Shown one piece after another: positions 49,697 through 55,177 of a stretch of DNA of 64,000 bases. Source of the stretch: Paenibacillus sp. V4I7 (GTDB lineage Bacteria; Bacillota; Bacilli; Paenibacillales; NBRC-103111); NCBI RefSeq assembly GCF_030817275.1, contig NZ_JAUSZD010000002.1:682001-746000 (forward strand), read 5' to 3'. The notes under the pieces are model-generated. The model was not told the origin of the DNA. It saw nothing but the letters and a program-made list of their open reading frames with translations, and did not search any database. Numbering within the stretch: position 1 is the first letter of the stretch; each line of letters starts with the position of its first letter. A program made the translations under genes and the position numbers.

Positions 49697-50776
49697 CTAA
49701 ATATACTCAGTCATTCCTTTTTCCTTCAGCAGGTCAACGATATCTTTAACAGATTGTGCTTTGTCTTTGGGACATATCAAAAGTGCATCCCCAGTATCCG
49801 CTATAATGAAGCCGTCTACGCCAATTGTCGTGATTAGTCTGCCATTTCCGTATATGATCGAATTTCGTGTATCTATGCCCATATGATTTGCTTTAATAAT
49901 GTTTCCCGATGGATCCGGTGGGAAGATCGCGCCGAGCGCATCCCAGCTGCCGATATCATTCCAGCCAAATTGACCAGACAGAACAACGACTTCATCAGAG
50001 CGCTCAAGGATCCCGTAATCAATCGAAATGTTTTGAAGCGTCGGATAGATGTTATTAATGATTTCCTCTGCCTGATCCGTGCCCAGATAATCGCTGATTG
50101 GAAGCATTGTCTTATAGAGCCGAGGCAGGTAACGTTTGAAATTATCAATAATGACGGAAGTTTTCCAAATGAAAATGCCGCTATTCCATAAATAATTACC
50201 TGATGACAGATAGCCTTGCGCTTTCTGAAAGTTCGGTTTTTCTACAAATTCAGCTACTTCGTATACGGCAACAGGATTTGAAGAGATAGGTTCTTTATCA
50301 AAGGCGATATAACCGTACCCAGTCGATGGAAATGTCGGTTTAATTCCGATGGTAACGATTTTGTCCGTCTTCATCGCAACCGTACAGGCTTCGTCTAACG
50401 TAAGCCGAAATTGTTCTTCATCGGTTATATAATGATCGGAAGGCAAGACGACCATTAAGGAATCACCGTATGATTTTTCTATAGATAACGCCGCGAAAAG
50501 TATGCTTGCAGCCGTGTTTCTGGCAACGGGCTCGATCAAAATGTTGCTTTTCGAAACACTGCTATGCATGATGCTCTCCAGCAGAACCGCTTGAGAACGA
50601 TTCGTAACAATAACGGTATTTTCTTGTGGGATAATGCCTTTGAATCGTTCGATTGTATCGTTTAGCATAATATCATTTCCGCTTATGTTTAGAAGCTGCT
50701 TCGGAATCTCTTGTCTAGACAGCGGCCAGAAGCGAGTTCCGCCCCCGCCAGCAAGGATGGTAGCAAATTTATTCAT
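49697..50776 (-). CDS. manC: Mannose-1-phosphate guanylyltransferase
   Basis: Makes GDP-mannose from mannose-1-phosphate and GTP. The 359-residue enzyme has the nucleotidyltransferase signature ILAGGGGTRFWPLSRQEIPK at the N-terminus, LIEPVARNTAASI, VLPSDHYI, FVEKP and SGIFIWK, all typical of ManC/type-II GDP-mannose pyrophosphorylases without the isomerase extension. Its start overlaps the stop of the upstream alpha/alpha-barrel gene by eight bases, so it is the last gene of a three-gene leftward operon that includes a GT4 glycosyltransferase. The operon presumably consumes its GDP-mannose. Confidence 0.9.
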   Translation of the reverse strand: MNKFATILAGGGGTRFWPLSRQEIPKQLLNISGNDIMLNDTIERFKGIIPQENTVIVTNRSQAVLLESIMHSSVSKSNILIEPVARNTAASILFAALSIEKSYGDSLMVVLPSDHYITDEEQFRLTLDEACTVAMKTDKIVTIGIKPTFPSTGYGYIAFDKEPISSNPVAVYEVAEFVEKPNFQKAQGYLSSGNYLWNSGIFIWKTSVIIDNFKRYLPRLYKTMLPISDYLGTDQAEEIINNIYPTLQNISIDYGILERSDEVVVLSGQFGWNDIGSWDALGAIFPPDPSGNIIKANHMGIDTRNSIIYGNGRLITTIGVDGFIIADTGDALLICPKDKAQSVKDIVDLLKEKGMTEYI

Positions 50777-51875
50777 GATGCATCACCAAATGGGCAATGG
50801 AGAAGGAAATGATGCTCTCAGAGCCTTGATTAAGGTTCAGCCCTGTGGCATGGATGCCATCGTAACAAGCTCCAGTTTGAGGGTCAATGAGAGAGATTTT
50901 TAATGAATTATGGCCTAAATACCATTCATAGCATAAGGCTGCTATCTTCAGATAAGCTGGGTCATGGAGCACGATCGCGGCTTCTTTACAAGCAAGAAGC
51001 ATTTCACAGGCCTCAATCGGCTGTTCGTCGTAGAGAGCGGCCTTTTCACCTCGCAACTGCCAGCCATGGCTGCCAATCGGCTTATAATAACCTTCTTTAG
51101 CAAAGGTTTTGGATACTAGAAAATCCAGGCTTTCCTTAGCAGTTTCCTTCAAACTAATGTTTTCCGAGATATGTGATGCTTTTAAAAGTGCCCATGGCAG
51201 CATGGAGTTTCCGTAGGTAAGGCTGTCTTCAAACCAATTCCAACCGTTACCCTTATTGTGAATATATTGATTGTGCAGTCGGACCGCTATTTTTTCGATC
51301 ACATTGATGATGAATGCTCTTGGTAGAAAAGCCTTTTCTTCTGCGGTGCTTGGGGTGTGGAGATAGGGGAAGGAGTAAGTTAAAGCATCAGGGGTTTCTA
51401 TTAAATAACTTAGACCGATTATCGCATAGGCTCCAGCACGAGGAGAACCTAGCTTCTCAATATGCGGTAATGCCTGATTGATTAAATAACGGCAGGTATT
51501 AAGTACATTATCAGGCAGAAAGGAGGAATGGGCGAGCGCGAATCCTAATGCCCATAGTGTGCGTCCTTGACAATCCTCAGAGCCGCTATCCTCCATGAAT
51601 GAACGGTTATAATCCATGAAGTTTCTAAAATTTCCATCTGTATTCTGTGCGTGGTGAATGAAGGAAACATAAGTATGAATGAGGTCTAACGTGCTGGAGT
51701 CTTTTTGGCTGCTATACAATAAAACGGCTGCGATTAATGCTCGTGCGTTATCATCCGTCGTATAACCTTTCGACCGGTCAGGTACTCCAAACTTGGTATG
51801 TTGAAAAATGCCTGTATCATCCGTTATCCTGCGCATGTAATCGGACTTAAACTGCAGTATCGTTTGTACTTGCAT
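50769..51875 (-). CDS. Predicted (alpha/alpha)6-barrel protein linked to glycosyltransferase
   Basis: A 368-residue soluble, helix-rich protein without signal peptide. Repeated helical pairs and aromatic/acidic clusters (NGWNWFEDSLTYGNSMLPWA, GRTLWALGFALAH, YDEQPIEACEMLLA) suggest a six-hairpin alpha/alpha barrel as found in several glycoside hydrolases, phosphorylases and epimerases. I recognise no named family with certainty; homologues are often encoded next to or fused to GT4 glycosyltransferases. It overlaps the GT4 stop by one base (TAATG) and the manC start by eight bases, so the three proteins are made together. The acidic residues in NWFED and DEQP are candidate catalytic residues. 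Confidence 0.7.
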   Translation of the reverse strand: MQVQTILQFKSDYMRRITDDTGIFQHTKFGVPDRSKGYTTDDNARALIAAVLLYSSQKDSSTLDLIHTYVSFIHHAQNTDGNFRNFMDYNRSFMEDSGSEDCQGRTLWALGFALAHSSFLPDNVLNTCRYLINQALPHIEKLGSPRAGAYAIIGLSYLIETPDALTYSFPYLHTPSTAEEKAFLPRAFIINVIEKIAVRLHNQYIHNKGNGWNWFEDSLTYGNSMLPWALLKASHISENISLKETAKESLDFLVSKTFAKEGYYKPIGSHGWQLRGEKAALYDEQPIEACEMLLACKEAAIVLHDPAYLKIAALCYEWYLGHNSLKISLIDPQTGACYDGIHATGLNLNQGSESIISFSIAHLVMHHE

Positions 51876-53095
51876 TAAATCACTCCTAAGTGTTTTACTT
51901 TAGCAAAGCTGGCATCGTAAGGATTTACTTTAGTTGACCCTGAATCTAGTGTTTTTTCTTGGAAGATAGCGGCATAGGTTTTGGCAATTTCGTTCCACAG
52001 CATGGTTTTTCCGAGTTCGAGCGTACGATTTTCCATTTCCGTTATTCTAGTAGGATCATTCAGTAATTGAAGGATGCAAGCTTCCAAGGAGGCTGAATCG
52101 CGGAAGTTGGCCAGTAAGCCCCTGCCCTCTGCCAGCATTTCCTCGGCATAACGGTATGGTGTGGAGACAATAACCCTTCCATAACCAACTCCGTATGCCA
52201 ATGTTCCGCTAACAGCTTGATCCTTTCCTAAATAAGGAGTCATATAAATATCTGACATGACCAGGGATTGAATGACTTCATCCTGCGTTAGTAGCTTGTC
52301 GACGAAGCGAACGTTACGCGTTAAATCAAATTCTTCCACAAGACACATCAGCTTTTGTCTGTATACCTCGCCTGTTTCTTGTTTAACGACCGGATGTGTT
52401 TTCCCCCAAATGATATAGAGAGAATCCGGGTGCTGTTTGACCACTCCGCGCATGGCCTCAATGCTGTATTCAATTCCTTTACCAGGGCTTAAAAAGCCAA
52501 AGGTGGATAAAATTTTCCGATCTGCAAAGCCATATTGCTCTTTGAGTTCTGATCTTGAACCGGTTTGGACATGGGGGACGCCATGGTGAATGAAAGCGAT
52601 TTTGGCGGCATCAACGCCATAAATGGAGATTAAATCGGTTACTGTAGATTGCGCCATCGTGACAACTTTAACACTTAGCTCTGCAACTCGATTCATGATG
52701 TGACGCTGCTTGGCAGAAGGTTTCGTTAACACGGTATGAAAAATGACGACAAACGGTATAGTCAGCCTCTCGACGAATGGAATCAAGTATTCTCCACTTT
52801 CTCCGCCGTATATACCGAATTCATGCTGGATAACGAGAAGATCAACGTCTGACGAGTTAAGATAATCGGCTGTTTCTATATAATCTGATAGCTTATGTTG
52901 GTCAATTTCCCTCATCACTTGCTCATGATAGTCATAAGTTTCGTTGTTATTGATTGCAATGATACGAGGCTTGTTAAAGCCTTTGATGTGCTGTAGTTCA
53001 TCTAATAAATCTTGAGTAAATGTAGCTATGCCGCATTCTCTCGGCAGGCTGGTGCCAAGAAAAACGATATTCCGATTGCTGCTTGTATACTTCAT
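51875..53095 (-). CDS. GT4-family glycosyltransferase
   Basis: A 406-residue GT-B glycosyltransferase. The N-terminal domain starts IVFLGTSLPRECGIATFTQD, and the C-terminal nucleotide-sugar domain has FGFLSPGKGIEYSIEAMRGV, DIYMTPYLGKDQAVSGTLAY and a YRYAEEMLAEGRG block in place of the usual E-x7-E. The ATG at 53095 lies eight bases after GGAGG; the longer frame from 53134 is not needed. The adjacent manC gene points to GDP-mannose as donor. There is no signal peptide, so the reaction is cytosolic. It leads the leftward operon and diverges from the HTH-DUF1861 pair. Confidence 0.88.
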   Translation of the reverse strand: MKYTSSNRNIVFLGTSLPRECGIATFTQDLLDELQHIKGFNKPRIIAINNNETYDYHEQVMREIDQHKLSDYIETADYLNSSDVDLLVIQHEFGIYGGESGEYLIPFVERLTIPFVVIFHTVLTKPSAKQRHIMNRVAELSVKVVTMAQSTVTDLISIYGVDAAKIAFIHHGVPHVQTGSRSELKEQYGFADRKILSTFGFLSPGKGIEYSIEAMRGVVKQHPDSLYIIWGKTHPVVKQETGEVYRQKLMCLVEEFDLTRNVRFVDKLLTQDEVIQSLVMSDIYMTPYLGKDQAVSGTLAYGVGYGRVIVSTPYRYAEEMLAEGRGLLANFRDSASLEACILQLLNDPTRITEMENRTLELGKTMLWNEIAKTYAAIFQEKTLDSGSTKVNPYDASFAKVKHLGVI

Positions 53096-53246
53096 ATAAT
53101 GAGCCTCCATGTTGGTTTGCGATTTTTGGAACACAAAAAAAAGAATCTAAAGATAGGTCTTTAATTCTTTGGGGGGGAGGGGTATTTTATTTTCAGAAAA
53201 TTCCAAATTATTTCCTGTTTTCACTATAACATGACCATTTTTTCTT

Positions 53247-53295
53247 GTCAATTTATTGACTCACCCTTGCATACCCTATATATTTATGGAGGAGG
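53247..53295 (+). promoter_or_regulatory. Promoter and palindromic operator of the HTH-DUF1861 operon
   Basis: TTGACT (53256-53261), 17 bases, TATATT (53279-53284). The -35 box overlaps the perfect palindrome GTCAAT-TT-ATTGAC (53247-53260). The ribosome site GGAGGAGG (53288-53295) follows so closely that the mRNA leader would be only a few bases. The overlap of palindrome and -35 suggests repression, perhaps by the HTH protein itself. Confidence 0.5.
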
Positions 53296-53302
53296 TGTAT
53301 GT

Positions 53303-53596
53303 GTGTCAGTCATACGCAGTAAACTAAAAGAAGTCATGGAAAATCACGACCCCAAATTATCTATACGTAAGCTCGCTAAAGAGATTAACTATCACTTTGA
53401 CTCCGTTCGGCGTATGTATAAGGATGAGATGGTACAGTATCCTAGGGATTTATTGCTGAAGCTTTGTCTGTATTTTAATGTCCAGCCTGGGCAGCTCATT
53501 GGCATCGAAATGGATGTGGAAAGTGATTGGACGATAGATGCATCGATGCATTATCAGGAGGACGTCAATGACAAGGAAATCGATAACAACAGATAG
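53303..53596 (+). CDS. Small XRE-type helix-turn-helix regulator
   Basis: A 97-residue protein. Residues 1-65 form a Cro/C1-type helix-turn-helix of the YozG-like kind (IRKLAKEINYHFDSVRRMYK, then PRDLLLKLCLYFNVQPGQLI). An acidic tail follows. It starts with GTG, seven bases after GGAGGAGG. It overlaps the DUF1861 gene by 29 bases and diverges from the GT4-barrel-manC operon, so it is the obvious candidate regulator of both units. A palindrome overlaps its own promoter. Confidence 0.8.
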   Translation: MSVIRSKLKEVMENHDPKLSIRKLAKEINYHFDSVRRMYKDEMVQYPRDLLLKLCLYFNVQPGQLIGIEMDVESDWTIDASMHYQEDVNDKEIDNNR

Positions 53597-54509
53597 CTGT
53601 AAACAGCTTCTGGAAACCTTTTATGCAAACCCCAGATTAACAAAAGTGCAAAAACTAGTGTTCTCTGGGGTTGGAAATCGCGATGTATACAATATAACGG
53701 CCCCGTTTCAGTACGACGGGGAGGAATTCATCTTAGGAAGAGTTGAGGAACGGGATAGTGAGTTCTCTCAAGTCTTCTTTTTTACATGCAAAAATCAGGT
53801 TTGGAGTCCCCGAATACATACACACACTTATAACTTGCAAGATCCATGTATGACCATCATCAAAGGTGAATTAATAGTTGGCGGAGTTGAAGTCATCACG
53901 GCTGTCGATAATCCGAATAAGATTGTATCGTGGGTTACCCAATTTTATCGTGGGTTTCAAATAGATTCATTATGTCACTTCTCGTCTGGACCCGGTACGA
54001 TGAAGGATATTCGTCTAATTGAGCTTAACGATGGTAGAGTAGGTGTCTTTACTAGACCGCAAGGAGCAAGAGGTGGAAGAGGGCAAATCGGATTTACAAT
54101 CATCAACTCGCTGGAAGAGCTCAATGAGCAAACCTTCATAAATGCGGAAATTCTTAGAGAACAATTTGTCTCCGAAGAATGGGGCGGTGCGAACGAAGCG
54201 CATTTACTGGGGAATGGTCATATAGGCGTTCTGGGACATATAGCTTGCTTTGATACCGTAGGAAACAAGCACTATTATTCCATGGTCTTTTCGATAAACC
54301 CTGAGACCTGTGAAAAAACACCCATGAAAATTATTGCGGCAAGAAGTGATTTTCCAAGAGGCCCTGGCAAACGGCCTGATCTTGAAGATGTTATTTTTAG
54401 CGGTGGGCTTATACGGTTAGGCAATGGGCGAGCCGTACTTTCTGTTGGCGTTAGTGATGCTGAGGCTTATCAGATTGAGATCCCTGATCCATTTATGGAA
54501 TATGAATAG
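53568..54509 (+). CDS. DUF1861 protein, GH130-like beta-propeller
   Basis: A 313-residue cytosolic protein of the DUF1861 family. The repeats YNITAPFQYDGEEFILGRVE and GTMKDIRLIELNDGRVGVFT resemble the five-bladed propeller of GH130 mannoside phosphorylases, in which a KDPRI-like block and an early Asp lie in the active site. Activity of DUF1861 itself is, to my knowledge, not established. The ATG at 53568 follows AGGAGG by six bases and overlaps the HTH gene end by 29 bases. Facing a GDP-mannose-making and mannosyl-transferring operon, it may degrade or phosphorolyse the mannoside that operon makes. Confidence 0.75.
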   Translation: MTRKSITTDSCKQLLETFYANPRLTKVQKLVFSGVGNRDVYNITAPFQYDGEEFILGRVEERDSEFSQVFFFTCKNQVWSPRIHTHTYNLQDPCMTIIKGELIVGGVEVITAVDNPNKIVSWVTQFYRGFQIDSLCHFSSGPGTMKDIRLIELNDGRVGVFTRPQGARGGRGQIGFTIINSLEELNEQTFINAEILREQFVSEEWGGANEAHLLGNGHIGVLGHIACFDTVGNKHYYSMVFSINPETCEKTPMKIIAARSDFPRGPGKRPDLEDVIFSGGLIRLGNGRAVLSVGVSDAEAYQIEIPDPFMEYE

Positions 54510-54532: not shown

Positions 54533-54586
54533 TTTGACTAGATTTTATGGTCATGTTATACTCATTTTGACAAGAATTTATGGTCA
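54533..54586 (+). promoter_or_regulatory. rplY promoter within a 21-bp direct repeat
   Basis: TTTGACTAGATTTTATGGTCA (54533-54553, key core TTTGAC-AGA-TTTATGGTCA) recurs at 54566-54586 with two mismatches, 33 bases downstream. The first copy supplies the -35 TTGACT (54534-54539), and TATACT at 54557-54562 after 17 bases is the -10. The second copy covers the likely transcription start. Confidence 0.65.
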
Positions 54587-54607
54587 AAGAGAGCGGGAAA
54601 CAAACAA

Positions 54608-55177
54608 ATGAGTAAATTTATTCAATTGAACAAGCGCACTGGTGAAACAAAGTCCCACATGAATCAAGCAAGAAAACAGGGACGCATCCCGGCTGTGTTA
54701 TATGGGATTGGTAAAGATACTTTATCATTAGAAGTAAATGAAAAAGAAATGCTGGATATTTTGAAAAAAAATCCTCGAGCTATTCTACAAGGCAATACAG
54801 CCGATGAAAAGGTAATTCCGGTCGTTGTTCAGAGCGTTCAAAAAGATGCCATGTCTGGCAATCTGCTGCATATCGACTTTCATCATGTAAACATGACTGA
54901 AATCATGGACAGCAAAGTGACTATTCAGTTTTCTGGAGAGGCAATTGGCATTAAATCTGGCGGGGTACTGCAAATCGAAATCTATGAAGTAGAAGTTCGT
55001 TGTATGCCTGGTGATTTGCCGACTTCAATGGAAGTGGATATTAGTGGTCTTGATGCTGGCGACAAGCTTCTCGTTTCCGACCTGATTTTCAAAGATGGCA
55101 TTGAAGTGTTGACGGATCCGAATACGGTTATGATTCAAATTAAAACCGTGCATGAGGAAGTCGAAGCAACAGCCTAG
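54608..55177 (+). CDS. rplY: Ribosomal protein L25 / general stress protein Ctc
   Basis: The 189-residue long form of bL25 (TL5/Ctc type), which binds 5S rRNA through its N-terminal domain (about 1-90: GRIPAVLYGIGKDTLSLEVN) and carries an extra beta-barrel C-terminal domain (about 95-180: VDISGLDAGDKLLVSDLIF). In B. subtilis ctc is a sigma-B stress gene. Here a sigma-A-type promoter with a direct repeat is seen instead. The ribosome site is weak (GAGCGGG). It stands alone and ends in a very long terminator. Confidence 0.93.
   Translation: MSKFIQLNKRTGETKSHMNQARKQGRIPAVLYGIGKDTLSLEVNEKEMLDILKKNPRAILQGNTADEKVIPVVVQSVQKDAMSGNLLHIDFHHVNMTEIMDSKVTIQFSGEAIGIKSGGVLQIEIYEVEVRCMPGDLPTSMEVDISGLDAGDKLLVSDLIFKDGIEVLTDPNTVMIQIKTVHEEVEATA

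What the first reader, a model, noticed from the sequence alone, without database searches (positions are those of the whole stretch)
49697..54509. Divergent mannosyl-transfer / GH130-like module with its own small regulator
Seen: manC, an alpha/alpha-barrel protein and a GT4 glycosyltransferase are joined by 1- and 8-base overlaps in one leftward operon. Divergent from it, a small HTH gene overlaps a DUF1861 gene by 29 bases. Known: ManC makes GDP-mannose; GT4 enzymes use such donors; DUF1861 looks like the GH130 phosphorylase fold. Inference: one arm builds a cytosolic mannoside or mannan-like compound and the other arm degrades or phosphorolyses it, switched by the HTH protein. That would be a self-contained glycan storage, osmolyte or signalling cycle. 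No flippase, exporter or signal peptide is present, which favours a cytosolic product.
Basis: partly seen in the sequence, partly recalled or inferred. Interest (0 to 1): 0.68.

Follow-up and report, generated by a model that had tools for sequence, protein, structure and literature searches.

The report
Bacterial mannogen-type mannose gene module
A tightly kept gene set in soil Paenibacillus bacteria pairs a GDP-mannose builder with a relative of the Leishmania enzyme that makes and breaks the mannose storage polymer mannogen, which suggests an unrecognised mannose-polymer cycle inside bacterial cells.

Summary
Genes, overlaps and orientations are as described. DUF1861 is a clear sequence relative of the Leishmania mannogen transferase/phosphorylases (CAZy GT108; E 1e-43 to 1e-52) and keeps the Asp mutated in MPT-2 D94N. 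The five genes stay together in 15 of 15 genomes (own included) whose barrel gene is at least 65% identical, in two gene orders, while most flanks change. Elsewhere the GT4-like + barrel pair travels with GH130 phosphorylases: of 80 loci, DUF1861 27, GH130 37, both 0, neither 16. In an even Bacillota sample, 47 of 48 genomes with a full barrel have GH130 or DUF1861, against 25 of 151 others. The HTH gene goes with a 20-bp site (40 of 40 loci; 1 of 57 without the HTH) placed before the GT4 operon and the neighbouring L25 gene. Not supported: opposed 'build' and 'break' arms. In one lineage DUF1861 is the last gene of the GT4 operon; GT108 enzymes are reversible and inverting, GT4 enzymes retaining, and this GT4-like family lacks a canonical EX7E. 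Best reading: cytosolic beta-mannoside synthesis and turnover that returns Man-1-P to GDP-mannose. Donor, linkage, product and purpose are untested.

The parts
49697..50776 (-). manC: monofunctional mannose-1-phosphate guanylyltransferase (359 aa)
   Evidence: PF00483, PF22640 above cut-off; TIGR01479 330.6 bits, below its cut-off of 372.95, which is for the longer bifunctional enzyme; two further ManC-type genes at 30% identity elsewhere in the genome
50769..51875 (-). (alpha/alpha)6 barrel protein (368 aa), no Pfam family above cut-off
   Evidence: model pLDDT 92.5; best PDB match 7tem YPO2471 Z 37.8, then cellobiose/AGE-type epimerases about 28-29, GH76 27.5, MmpH 25.7
51875..53095 (-). GT4-like GT-B glycosyltransferase (406 aa from ATG 53095; open frame to 53134)
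   Evidence: PF00534 above cut-off; model matches HepE Z 36.2, PimA 34.3, PimB' 33.6, ManT 32.7; start; no EX7E
53303..53596 (+). small Cro/C1-type HTH regulator (97 aa from GTG 53303; open frame from 53231)
   Evidence: HTH_26; shorter open frames in relatives; co-occurs with the 20-bp site in 40 of 40 loci
53568..54509 (+). DUF1861 = GT108-type mannosyltransferase/phosphorylase relative (313 aa); Asp 92 (102 in the long frame) aligned with Asp94 of MPT-2
   Evidence: PF08950 385.3 bits; 2b4w, 6q50, 6q4w, 6q4x, 6q4z; Asp in 53 of 53 rows
53232..53251 (-). 20-bp site TTGACAAGAAAAAATGGTCA overlapping the leftward promoter
53223..53251 (-). leftward sigma-A-like promoter of the GT4 operon, TTGACA-N17-TATAGT
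   Evidence: coordinates; match to consensus by eye
53140..53170 (-). A+T-rich hairpin with T-run in the GT4 leader, attenuator-like
   Evidence: seen by eye in the aligned leaders (18, 17); weak alone: z -1.78, 13 of 200 shuffles fold as well
54534..54553 (+). 20-bp site before the L25 gene, copy 1, overlapping a TTGACT-N17-TATACT promoter (by eye)
54567..54586 (+). 20-bp site before the L25 gene, copy 2
54608..55177 (+). ribosomal protein L25/CTC-type gene, conserved neighbour that shares the site
   Evidence: PF01386 and PF14693 above cut-off; 13 of 14 and 23 of 32 loci

Best explanation
A regulated cytosolic mannoside cycle. ManC makes GDP-mannose from Man-1-P; the GT4-like enzyme with its (alpha/alpha)6 partner makes, or primes and trims, a mannose-containing acceptor; the DUF1861/GT108 protein adds and removes beta-linked (most likely beta-1,2) mannose units on it, releasing Man-1-P that ManC turns back into GDP-mannose. 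The HTH protein sets expression of the GT4 operon, and of the neighbouring L25 gene, through a dedicated site. Shown: homology, the kept catalytic Asp, the conserved set, GH130 standing in for DUF1861 elsewhere, HTH-site co-occurrence. Inferred: donor, linkage, polymer, use as a reserve, direction of flux, binding of the site by the HTH.
For: DUF1861 relation to Leishmania MPTs and the Asp; GT108 acts on beta-1,2-mannan with alpha-Man-1-P (PMC8950772, passages). Module kept in 15 of 15 genomes with the barrel at >=65% identity, in two orders. Module-linked DUF1861 genes form two clades; one clade rejected, AU p 0.019. GT4-like + barrel together in 80 of 80 loci, with DUF1861 27, GH130 37, both 0, neither 16. 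Thermoanaerobacter locus L109: both GH130s exceed the cut-off of the beta-1,2-mannobiose phosphorylase equivalog (545.4 and 543 v 450). Even sample of 199 Bacillota: 47 of 48 v 25 of 151; 33 of 49 barrels within 8 kb of a phosphorylase gene. 3 of 7 loci fetched from that sample carry a phosphoglucomutase/phosphomannomutase-family gene. In G008 the GT4 operon and DUF1861 are both lost while HTH, sites and L25 are kept.
Against: No chemistry is known for the GT4-like or barrel protein; EX7E absent in 76 of 76 testable rows. Five of 32 named Paenibacillaceae-type loci have no DUF1861 at the locus (L084, L100, L101, L105, L117); L084/L188 keeps the synthetic genes with a 47-residue DUF1861 remnant. 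2 of 15 genomes searched have neither phosphorylase family. DUF1861 is not exclusive to the module: 11 of the 26 relatives that hold it lack the full set, and of 6 Bacillota genomes with it in the even sample only 2 have it beside a barrel. 16 of 49 barrels in that sample have no phosphorylase gene within 8 kb (7 on the same contig further off, 9 with none on the contig). Counts include relatives, and at least four named loci are the same contigs as relative loci.
Confidence: 0.58

Rival explanations
1. Salvage: beta-mannosides taken from outside are phosphorolysed by DUF1861 to Man-1-P, which ManC turns into GDP-mannose for the GT4-like enzyme, which makes some other glycoconjugate (the scheme proposed for Thermoanaerobacter).
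For: Chiku et al. proposed this for a GT4-guanylyltransferase-GH130 cluster with an ABC importer (PMC4264767, passages); ManC sits in the operon; some other DUF1861 genes sit with solute-binding proteins and permeases (L066, L070) and with GH130 (L070).
Against: No transporter is conserved beside the Paenibacillus module; the importer-linked DUF1861 genes looked at fall in other clades; 3 of 7 loci elsewhere carry a phosphoglucomutase/phosphomannomutase-family gene, whose sugar is not shown, so Man-1-P may be made de novo.
Confidence: 0.2
2. Methylmannose-polysaccharide-like scheme: the GT4-like enzyme makes an alpha-mannan, the barrel is an endo-hydrolase that cuts it into primers (as ManT/MmpH do), and DUF1861 caps or trims it.
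For: GT4 model near ManT (Z 32.7, rank 16), barrel model near MmpH (Z 25.7, rank 31); ManT is a GT4 enzyme and MmpH an alpha-endomannosidase of one gene cluster (PMC9883506, abstract and passages); seven invariant carboxylates in 48 barrel rows.
Against: Fold-level resemblance only; neither is the closest match; the Glu that matters in ManT (Glu313) is not part of an EX7E here; no methyltransferase was looked for.
Confidence: 0.2
3. Precursor supply for a surface glycan: the module mannosylates a lipid, protein or wall precursor and DUF1861 edits it.
For: Many GT4 enzymes act this way (recalled); an MFS gene lies next to manC in the window.
Against: No flippase, polymerase or exporter is conserved; the MFS gene is found in 5 of 14 and 2 of 32 loci only; no hydrophobic start is seen in the five proteins (by eye, no predictor run).
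Confidence: 0.1

Closest known systems
Leishmania mannogen enzymes MTP/MPT (CAZy GT108; PDB 6q4w, 6q4x, 6q4z, 6q50; 2b4w, its organism recalled)
   Same: DUF1861 is a sequence relative over about 300 residues with the same catalytic Asp.
   Different: Bacterial operon with ManC, a GT4-like enzyme, a barrel protein and a small HTH; activity untested.
Thermoanaerobacter Teth514_1786-1789 cluster (GT4, guanylyltransferase, two GH130 beta-1,2-mannoside phosphorylases; PMC4264767, passages)
   Same: Same logic: Man-1-P guanylyltransferase + GT4-like + phosphorylase; the three Thermoanaerobacter loci found here (L109, L111, L113) also carry the barrel.
   Different: GT108 in place of GH130; another guanylyltransferase type in L109; no ABC importer conserved beside the Paenibacillus module; own HTH, site and L25 neighbour.
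Mycobacterial ManT/MmpH (methylmannose polysaccharide; PMC9883506, abstract and passages)
   Same: GT-B mannosyltransferase paired with an (alpha/alpha)6-fold hydrolase; folds match at Z 32.7 and 25.7.
   Different: The barrel profile has no sequence match to MmpH at E<=1; no EX7E here; the mycobacterial cluster has methyltransferases and, as far as I recall, no phosphorylase.
YPO2471 (PDB 7tem)
   Same: Closest solved relative of the barrel: Z 37.8, profile E 2.5e-19.
   Different: Named a putative exported protein in the PDB; no function given there.

Membership tests
CAZy GT108 (PF08950/DUF1861) | sequence homology to the Leishmania MTPs | tested here: met
   E 2.7e-52 to 1.5e-43 over about 300 residues
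CAZy GT108 (PF08950/DUF1861) | catalytic Asp (D94 of MPT-2) | tested here: met
   aligned to D102 of the long frame; invariant in 53 of 53 rows, 4 short rows dropped
CAZy GT108 (PF08950/DUF1861) | five-bladed beta-propeller | not tested
   inferred from homology to solved members; no model was made of this protein
CAZy GT108 (PF08950/DUF1861) | dual GDP-Man transferase and Man-1-P phosphorylase activity on beta-1,2-mannan | not testable with these tools
   needs enzyme assay
GH130 (PF04041) | match to PF04041 | tested here: not met
   DUF1861 matched PF08950 alone at E<=0.1
GT4 | GT-B fold and PF00534 | tested here: met
   PF00534 41 v 26.4 bits; model Z 36.2 to HepE
GT4 | EX7E motif in the C-terminal domain | tested here: not met
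   0 of 76 rows with an SGT landmark, of 80 (3 of the other 4 read SGA with the same Gln and Tyr, 1 is cut short); Gln with Tyr/Phe eight on in 76 of 76. The alignment here is unsure: HMMER puts the first Glu two residues earlier, where many Bacteroidota rows have Glu; the second Glu is missing in either register. Hence 'GT4-like'
GT4 | retaining transfer, here from GDP-mannose | not testable with these tools
   needs enzyme assay
AGE/cellobiose 2-epimerases (barrel) | catalytic histidines (recalled) | tested here: inconclusive
   fold similar (Z about 28-29); H26 is the only His kept in at least 43 of 48 rows, but no residue-level superposition was made
GH76 / MmpH-like hydrolases (barrel) | catalytic carboxylate pair | tested here: inconclusive
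   D19, D20, D41, D42, E216, D339, E353 invariant in 48 of 48; positions not mapped onto a solved active site
Mannose-1-phosphate guanylyltransferase (ManC) | NTP_transferase plus ManC beta-helix domains | tested here: met
   PF00483 and PF22640 above cut-off
Mannogen-type system | intracellular beta-1,2-mannan | not testable with these tools
   needs glycan analysis

The most novel reading that the evidence does not exclude
A so far unrecognised cytosolic beta-mannan system, a bacterial counterpart of mannogen, is widespread in Bacillota (full barrel in 48 of 199 evenly drawn genomes) and present in Bacteroidota and some archaeal records: a GT4-like/(alpha/alpha)6 pair builds or primes the polymer, and GH130 or, by replacement in Paenibacillaceae, GT108 elongates and phosphorolyses it. 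In Paenibacillus it is wired by a private operator to a ribosomal L25/CTC gene, tying mannan turnover to translation or stress.
Probability: 0.35. Interest if true: 0.85.

Novelty: new variant of a known kind. Interest (0 to 1): 0.6.

Why it matters
Mannogen is known from Leishmania and related protozoa. A bacterial operon that joins GDP-mannose synthesis to the same enzyme family, with GH130 in its place elsewhere, would give a physiological setting to many GH130 and DUF1861 genes of unknown role, offer a bacterial parallel for the parasite enzymes, and make a concrete test possible: look for intracellular beta-mannan in a harmless soil Paenibacillus.

Tried and rejected
Epimerase reading of the barrel: fold fits, conserved-His pattern does not, residue mapping not done. 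Lanthionine-cyclase reading: LANC_like is below its cut-off (17.2 v 23.2 bits) and 6wq1 reaches only E 0.72. Two opposed arms: contradicted by the co-directional order. Profile comparison with ordinary GT4 genes to place EX7E: one alignment did not reach the region, the other was doubtful there, so the statement rests on HMMER alignments and the landmark count. Leader hairpin as a proven attenuator: not shown, z -1.78. N-terminal part of the 1,200-residue GH130 fusions: no PDB match at E<=1 for the one tested and only Pfam matches far below cut-off for the three tested. Paper searches: in the listings shown (20 of 53, 20 of 28) I saw no study of a bacterial GT108 or of this GT4-barrel pair apart from the Thermoanaerobacter cluster; the library lacks most subscription papers, the Sernee 2019 mannogen-enzyme paper among them.

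Limits: the clade test was run after a quick tree had been seen, on 44 of 53 rows (9 near-copies left out). GH130 in the 80 loci was called with a model of 5 seeds. In one search, 20 genomes whose barrel matches were partial and of E 5e-17 or weaker were counted with the 151. After rechecking I call the mutase a phosphoglucomutase/phosphomannomutase-family gene, not a proven phosphomannomutase, and lowered the main reading from 0.6 to 0.58 for that.
Full report
What is there. The window lies in an 8.5-Mb genome held as G000; the closest named matches of its barrel gene are Paenibacillus. The HTH most likely starts at GTG 53303 and GT4 at ATG 53095, each behind a good ribosome-binding site. ManC is a monofunctional guanylyltransferase; two other ManC-type genes at 30% identity exist in the genome, so this is an additional copy.

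DUF1861 is a GT108 relative. phmmer finds five distinct PDB sequences at E<=1: 2b4w (organism recalled as Leishmania), 6q50 (MPT-4), 6q4w (MPT-1), 6q4x (MPT-2) and 6q4z (its D94N mutant), E 2.7e-52 to 1.5e-43. The letter that differs between 6q4x and 6q4z aligns with Asp 102 of the long frame, 92 of the short, which is Asp in 53 of 53 bacterial rows (4 rows under 280 residues dropped). The review PMC8950772 (passages) says that the characterised GT108 enzymes are inverting dual glycosyltransferase-phosphorylases acting on mannogen, a beta-1,2-mannan reserve, with the fold and a similar mechanism to GH130. The original paper is not held.

The set is kept. In 60 genomes (own included) DUF1861 occurs in 26 and the barrel in 17. 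All 15 genomes with a barrel of 65% identity or more have manC, barrel, GT4-like and DUF1861 side by side: 11 in the divergent order, 4 as GT4-barrel-manC-DUF1861 on one strand. The other two (G040, G042; 32 and 38%) have barrel and GT4-like without the rest nearby. So 11 of the 26 genomes with DUF1861 lack the full set. The HTH is found in all 15 and in 3 of the other 45. Over 14 relative loci and 32 named loci, presence is manC 14 and 29, barrel 14 and 32, GT4-like 14 and 32, DUF1861 14 and 27, HTH 13 and 21 by frame calling, L25 13 and 23, each other flanking gene at most 5 and 2.

Repeated association. In a maximum-likelihood tree of 44 DUF1861 proteins the module-linked ones form two supported clades (each 100/99), the window's and a co-directional one, with GH130-linked and other genes between them; holding them as one clade costs 14.4 log units, AU p 0.019. 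Two gains, or one gain and an escape, both remain possible.

Beyond Paenibacillaceae. The GT4-like partner is present in 80 of 80, fused to the barrel in 30; DUF1861 is in 27, GH130 in 37, both in none, neither in 16. DUF1861 stands only in the Paenibacillaceae-type loci, so the swap follows lineage. Of the 16, 15 genomes could be searched: 13 have GH130 and 6 DUF1861 somewhere, 2 have neither. In Thermoanaerobacter locus L109 the two adjacent GH130s exceed the cut-off for beta-1,2-mannobiose phosphorylase, and beside them stands a nucleotidyltransferase whose best match is mannose-1-phosphate guanylyltransferase, below that model's cut-off (278.6 v 440); this is the cluster type of PMC4264767 (passages).

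Even sample. In 199 Bacillota genomes a full or long barrel match (E 3e-41 or better) occurs in 48 genomes (49 genes); 20 further genomes have only partial matches of E 5e-17 or weaker and were counted with the rest. GH130 or DUF1861 occurs in 47 of the 48 and in 25 of 151 others (Fisher p 5e-26, not corrected for kinship). 33 of 49 barrels lie within 8 kb of one (31 GH130, 2 DUF1861); 7 have one further off on the contig, 9 none on the contig. DUF1861 itself is rare here: 6 of 199 genomes, 2 of them beside a barrel. Of seven loci fetched from this sample, three (L243, L245, L249) carry a phosphoglucomutase/phosphomannomutase-family gene with the GT4-like, barrel and GH130 genes and a nucleotidyltransferase, which would fit de novo supply of Man-1-P and so synthesis; its sugar is not shown.

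The two enzymes of unknown chemistry. The barrel model (pLDDT 92.5) is an (alpha/alpha)6 fold nearest to YPO2471 (Z 37.8), then 2-epimerases, GH76 mannanases and the mannan hydrolase MmpH (Z 25.7). The GT4-like model (pLDDT 85) is GT-B, nearest to HepE, with PimA, PimB' and ManT close behind. Yet no EX7E motif is found: 0 of 76 rows that hold the SGT landmark, Gln and Tyr/Phe standing at the likely places. The register is unsure, and many Bacteroidota rows have a Glu two residues before the Gln; the second Glu is missing either way. PMC9883506 (abstract and passages) reports that the Ala variant of Glu313, the matching first Glu of ManT, has drastically reduced activity. So 'GT4 using GDP-mannose' is a fair guess from the company it keeps, not a finding.

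Regulation. A 20-bp site, TTGACNAGANNNNATGGTCA, occurs exactly three times in each of 8 of 30 genomes searched, once in one more, in none of the other 21, and its reversed control nowhere. In the window one copy lies inside the leftward GT4 promoter and two before the L25 gene. In nine co-directional loci the only near-matches at up to 4 mismatches are two per locus, between GT4 and L25 and pointing to each (about 0.1 expected per locus by simple shuffling). Of 97 loci (at least five repeated), 40 of 40 with the HTH have a site at 3 mismatches or fewer, and 56 of 57 without it have none; the exception is L147. The HTH is thus very probably the binder, and L25 its second target. The leader also carries a hairpin with a T-run seen in the aligned relatives, weak by itself.

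Natural losses. In G008 neither barrel nor DUF1861 is found in the genome; at the locus only the first 17 residues of the long GT4 frame and pieces of DUF1861 are recognisable, while HTH, all three sites and L25 remain. In L084/L188 only DUF1861 is lost, leaving 47 recognisable residues. The first supports coupling of the two parts, the second shows that it is not strict.

Judgement. The module is real and well kept, and DUF1861 is a mannogen-type enzyme by sequence. I favour cytosolic beta-mannoside synthesis and turnover with Man-1-P recycling (0.58). Storage, osmolyte or signalling use cannot be told apart. The claim of two opposed arms should be dropped.

Noticed in passing
window 54534-55177: A ribosomal protein L25/CTC-type gene is a conserved neighbour of the module in both gene orders and shares the private 20-bp site; whether it is the genome's only L25 gene was not checked.
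   Followed up: partly
window 53140-53170 (-): A+T-rich hairpin followed by a T-run in the about 120-nt leader of the GT4 operon, seen in the aligned relatives; attenuator-like.
   Followed up: partly
L187 8355-9003 (G008): Decayed copy of the module: GT4 operon and DUF1861 lost, HTH, sites and L25 kept.
   Followed up: yes
L243 2216-5824, L244 8069-11560, L246 7018-10566, L249 369-3929: GH130 domains at the C-terminal end of about 1,200-residue proteins; the about 860-residue N-terminal part has no Pfam match above cut-off (three tested). It begins with an IGIPFYNE stretch that looks like a GT-A transferase by eye, and one of the three matched Glycos_transf_2 at E 0.17 only.
   Followed up: partly
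L066 7674-8618 (own genome, G000:C2:6771691): Second DUF1861 of the genome, outside the module, near a solute-binding protein, a permease, an AraC-type regulator, a carbon-nitrogen hydrolase and a peptidyl-arginine-deiminase-family gene.
   Followed up: partly
L139 10232-11245, L131 5424-6458: A second, ordinary GT4 gene with an EX7E motif stands beside the fused GT4-barrel gene and GH130; frames of similar size recur in other Bacteroidota loci but were not all tested.
   Followed up: partly
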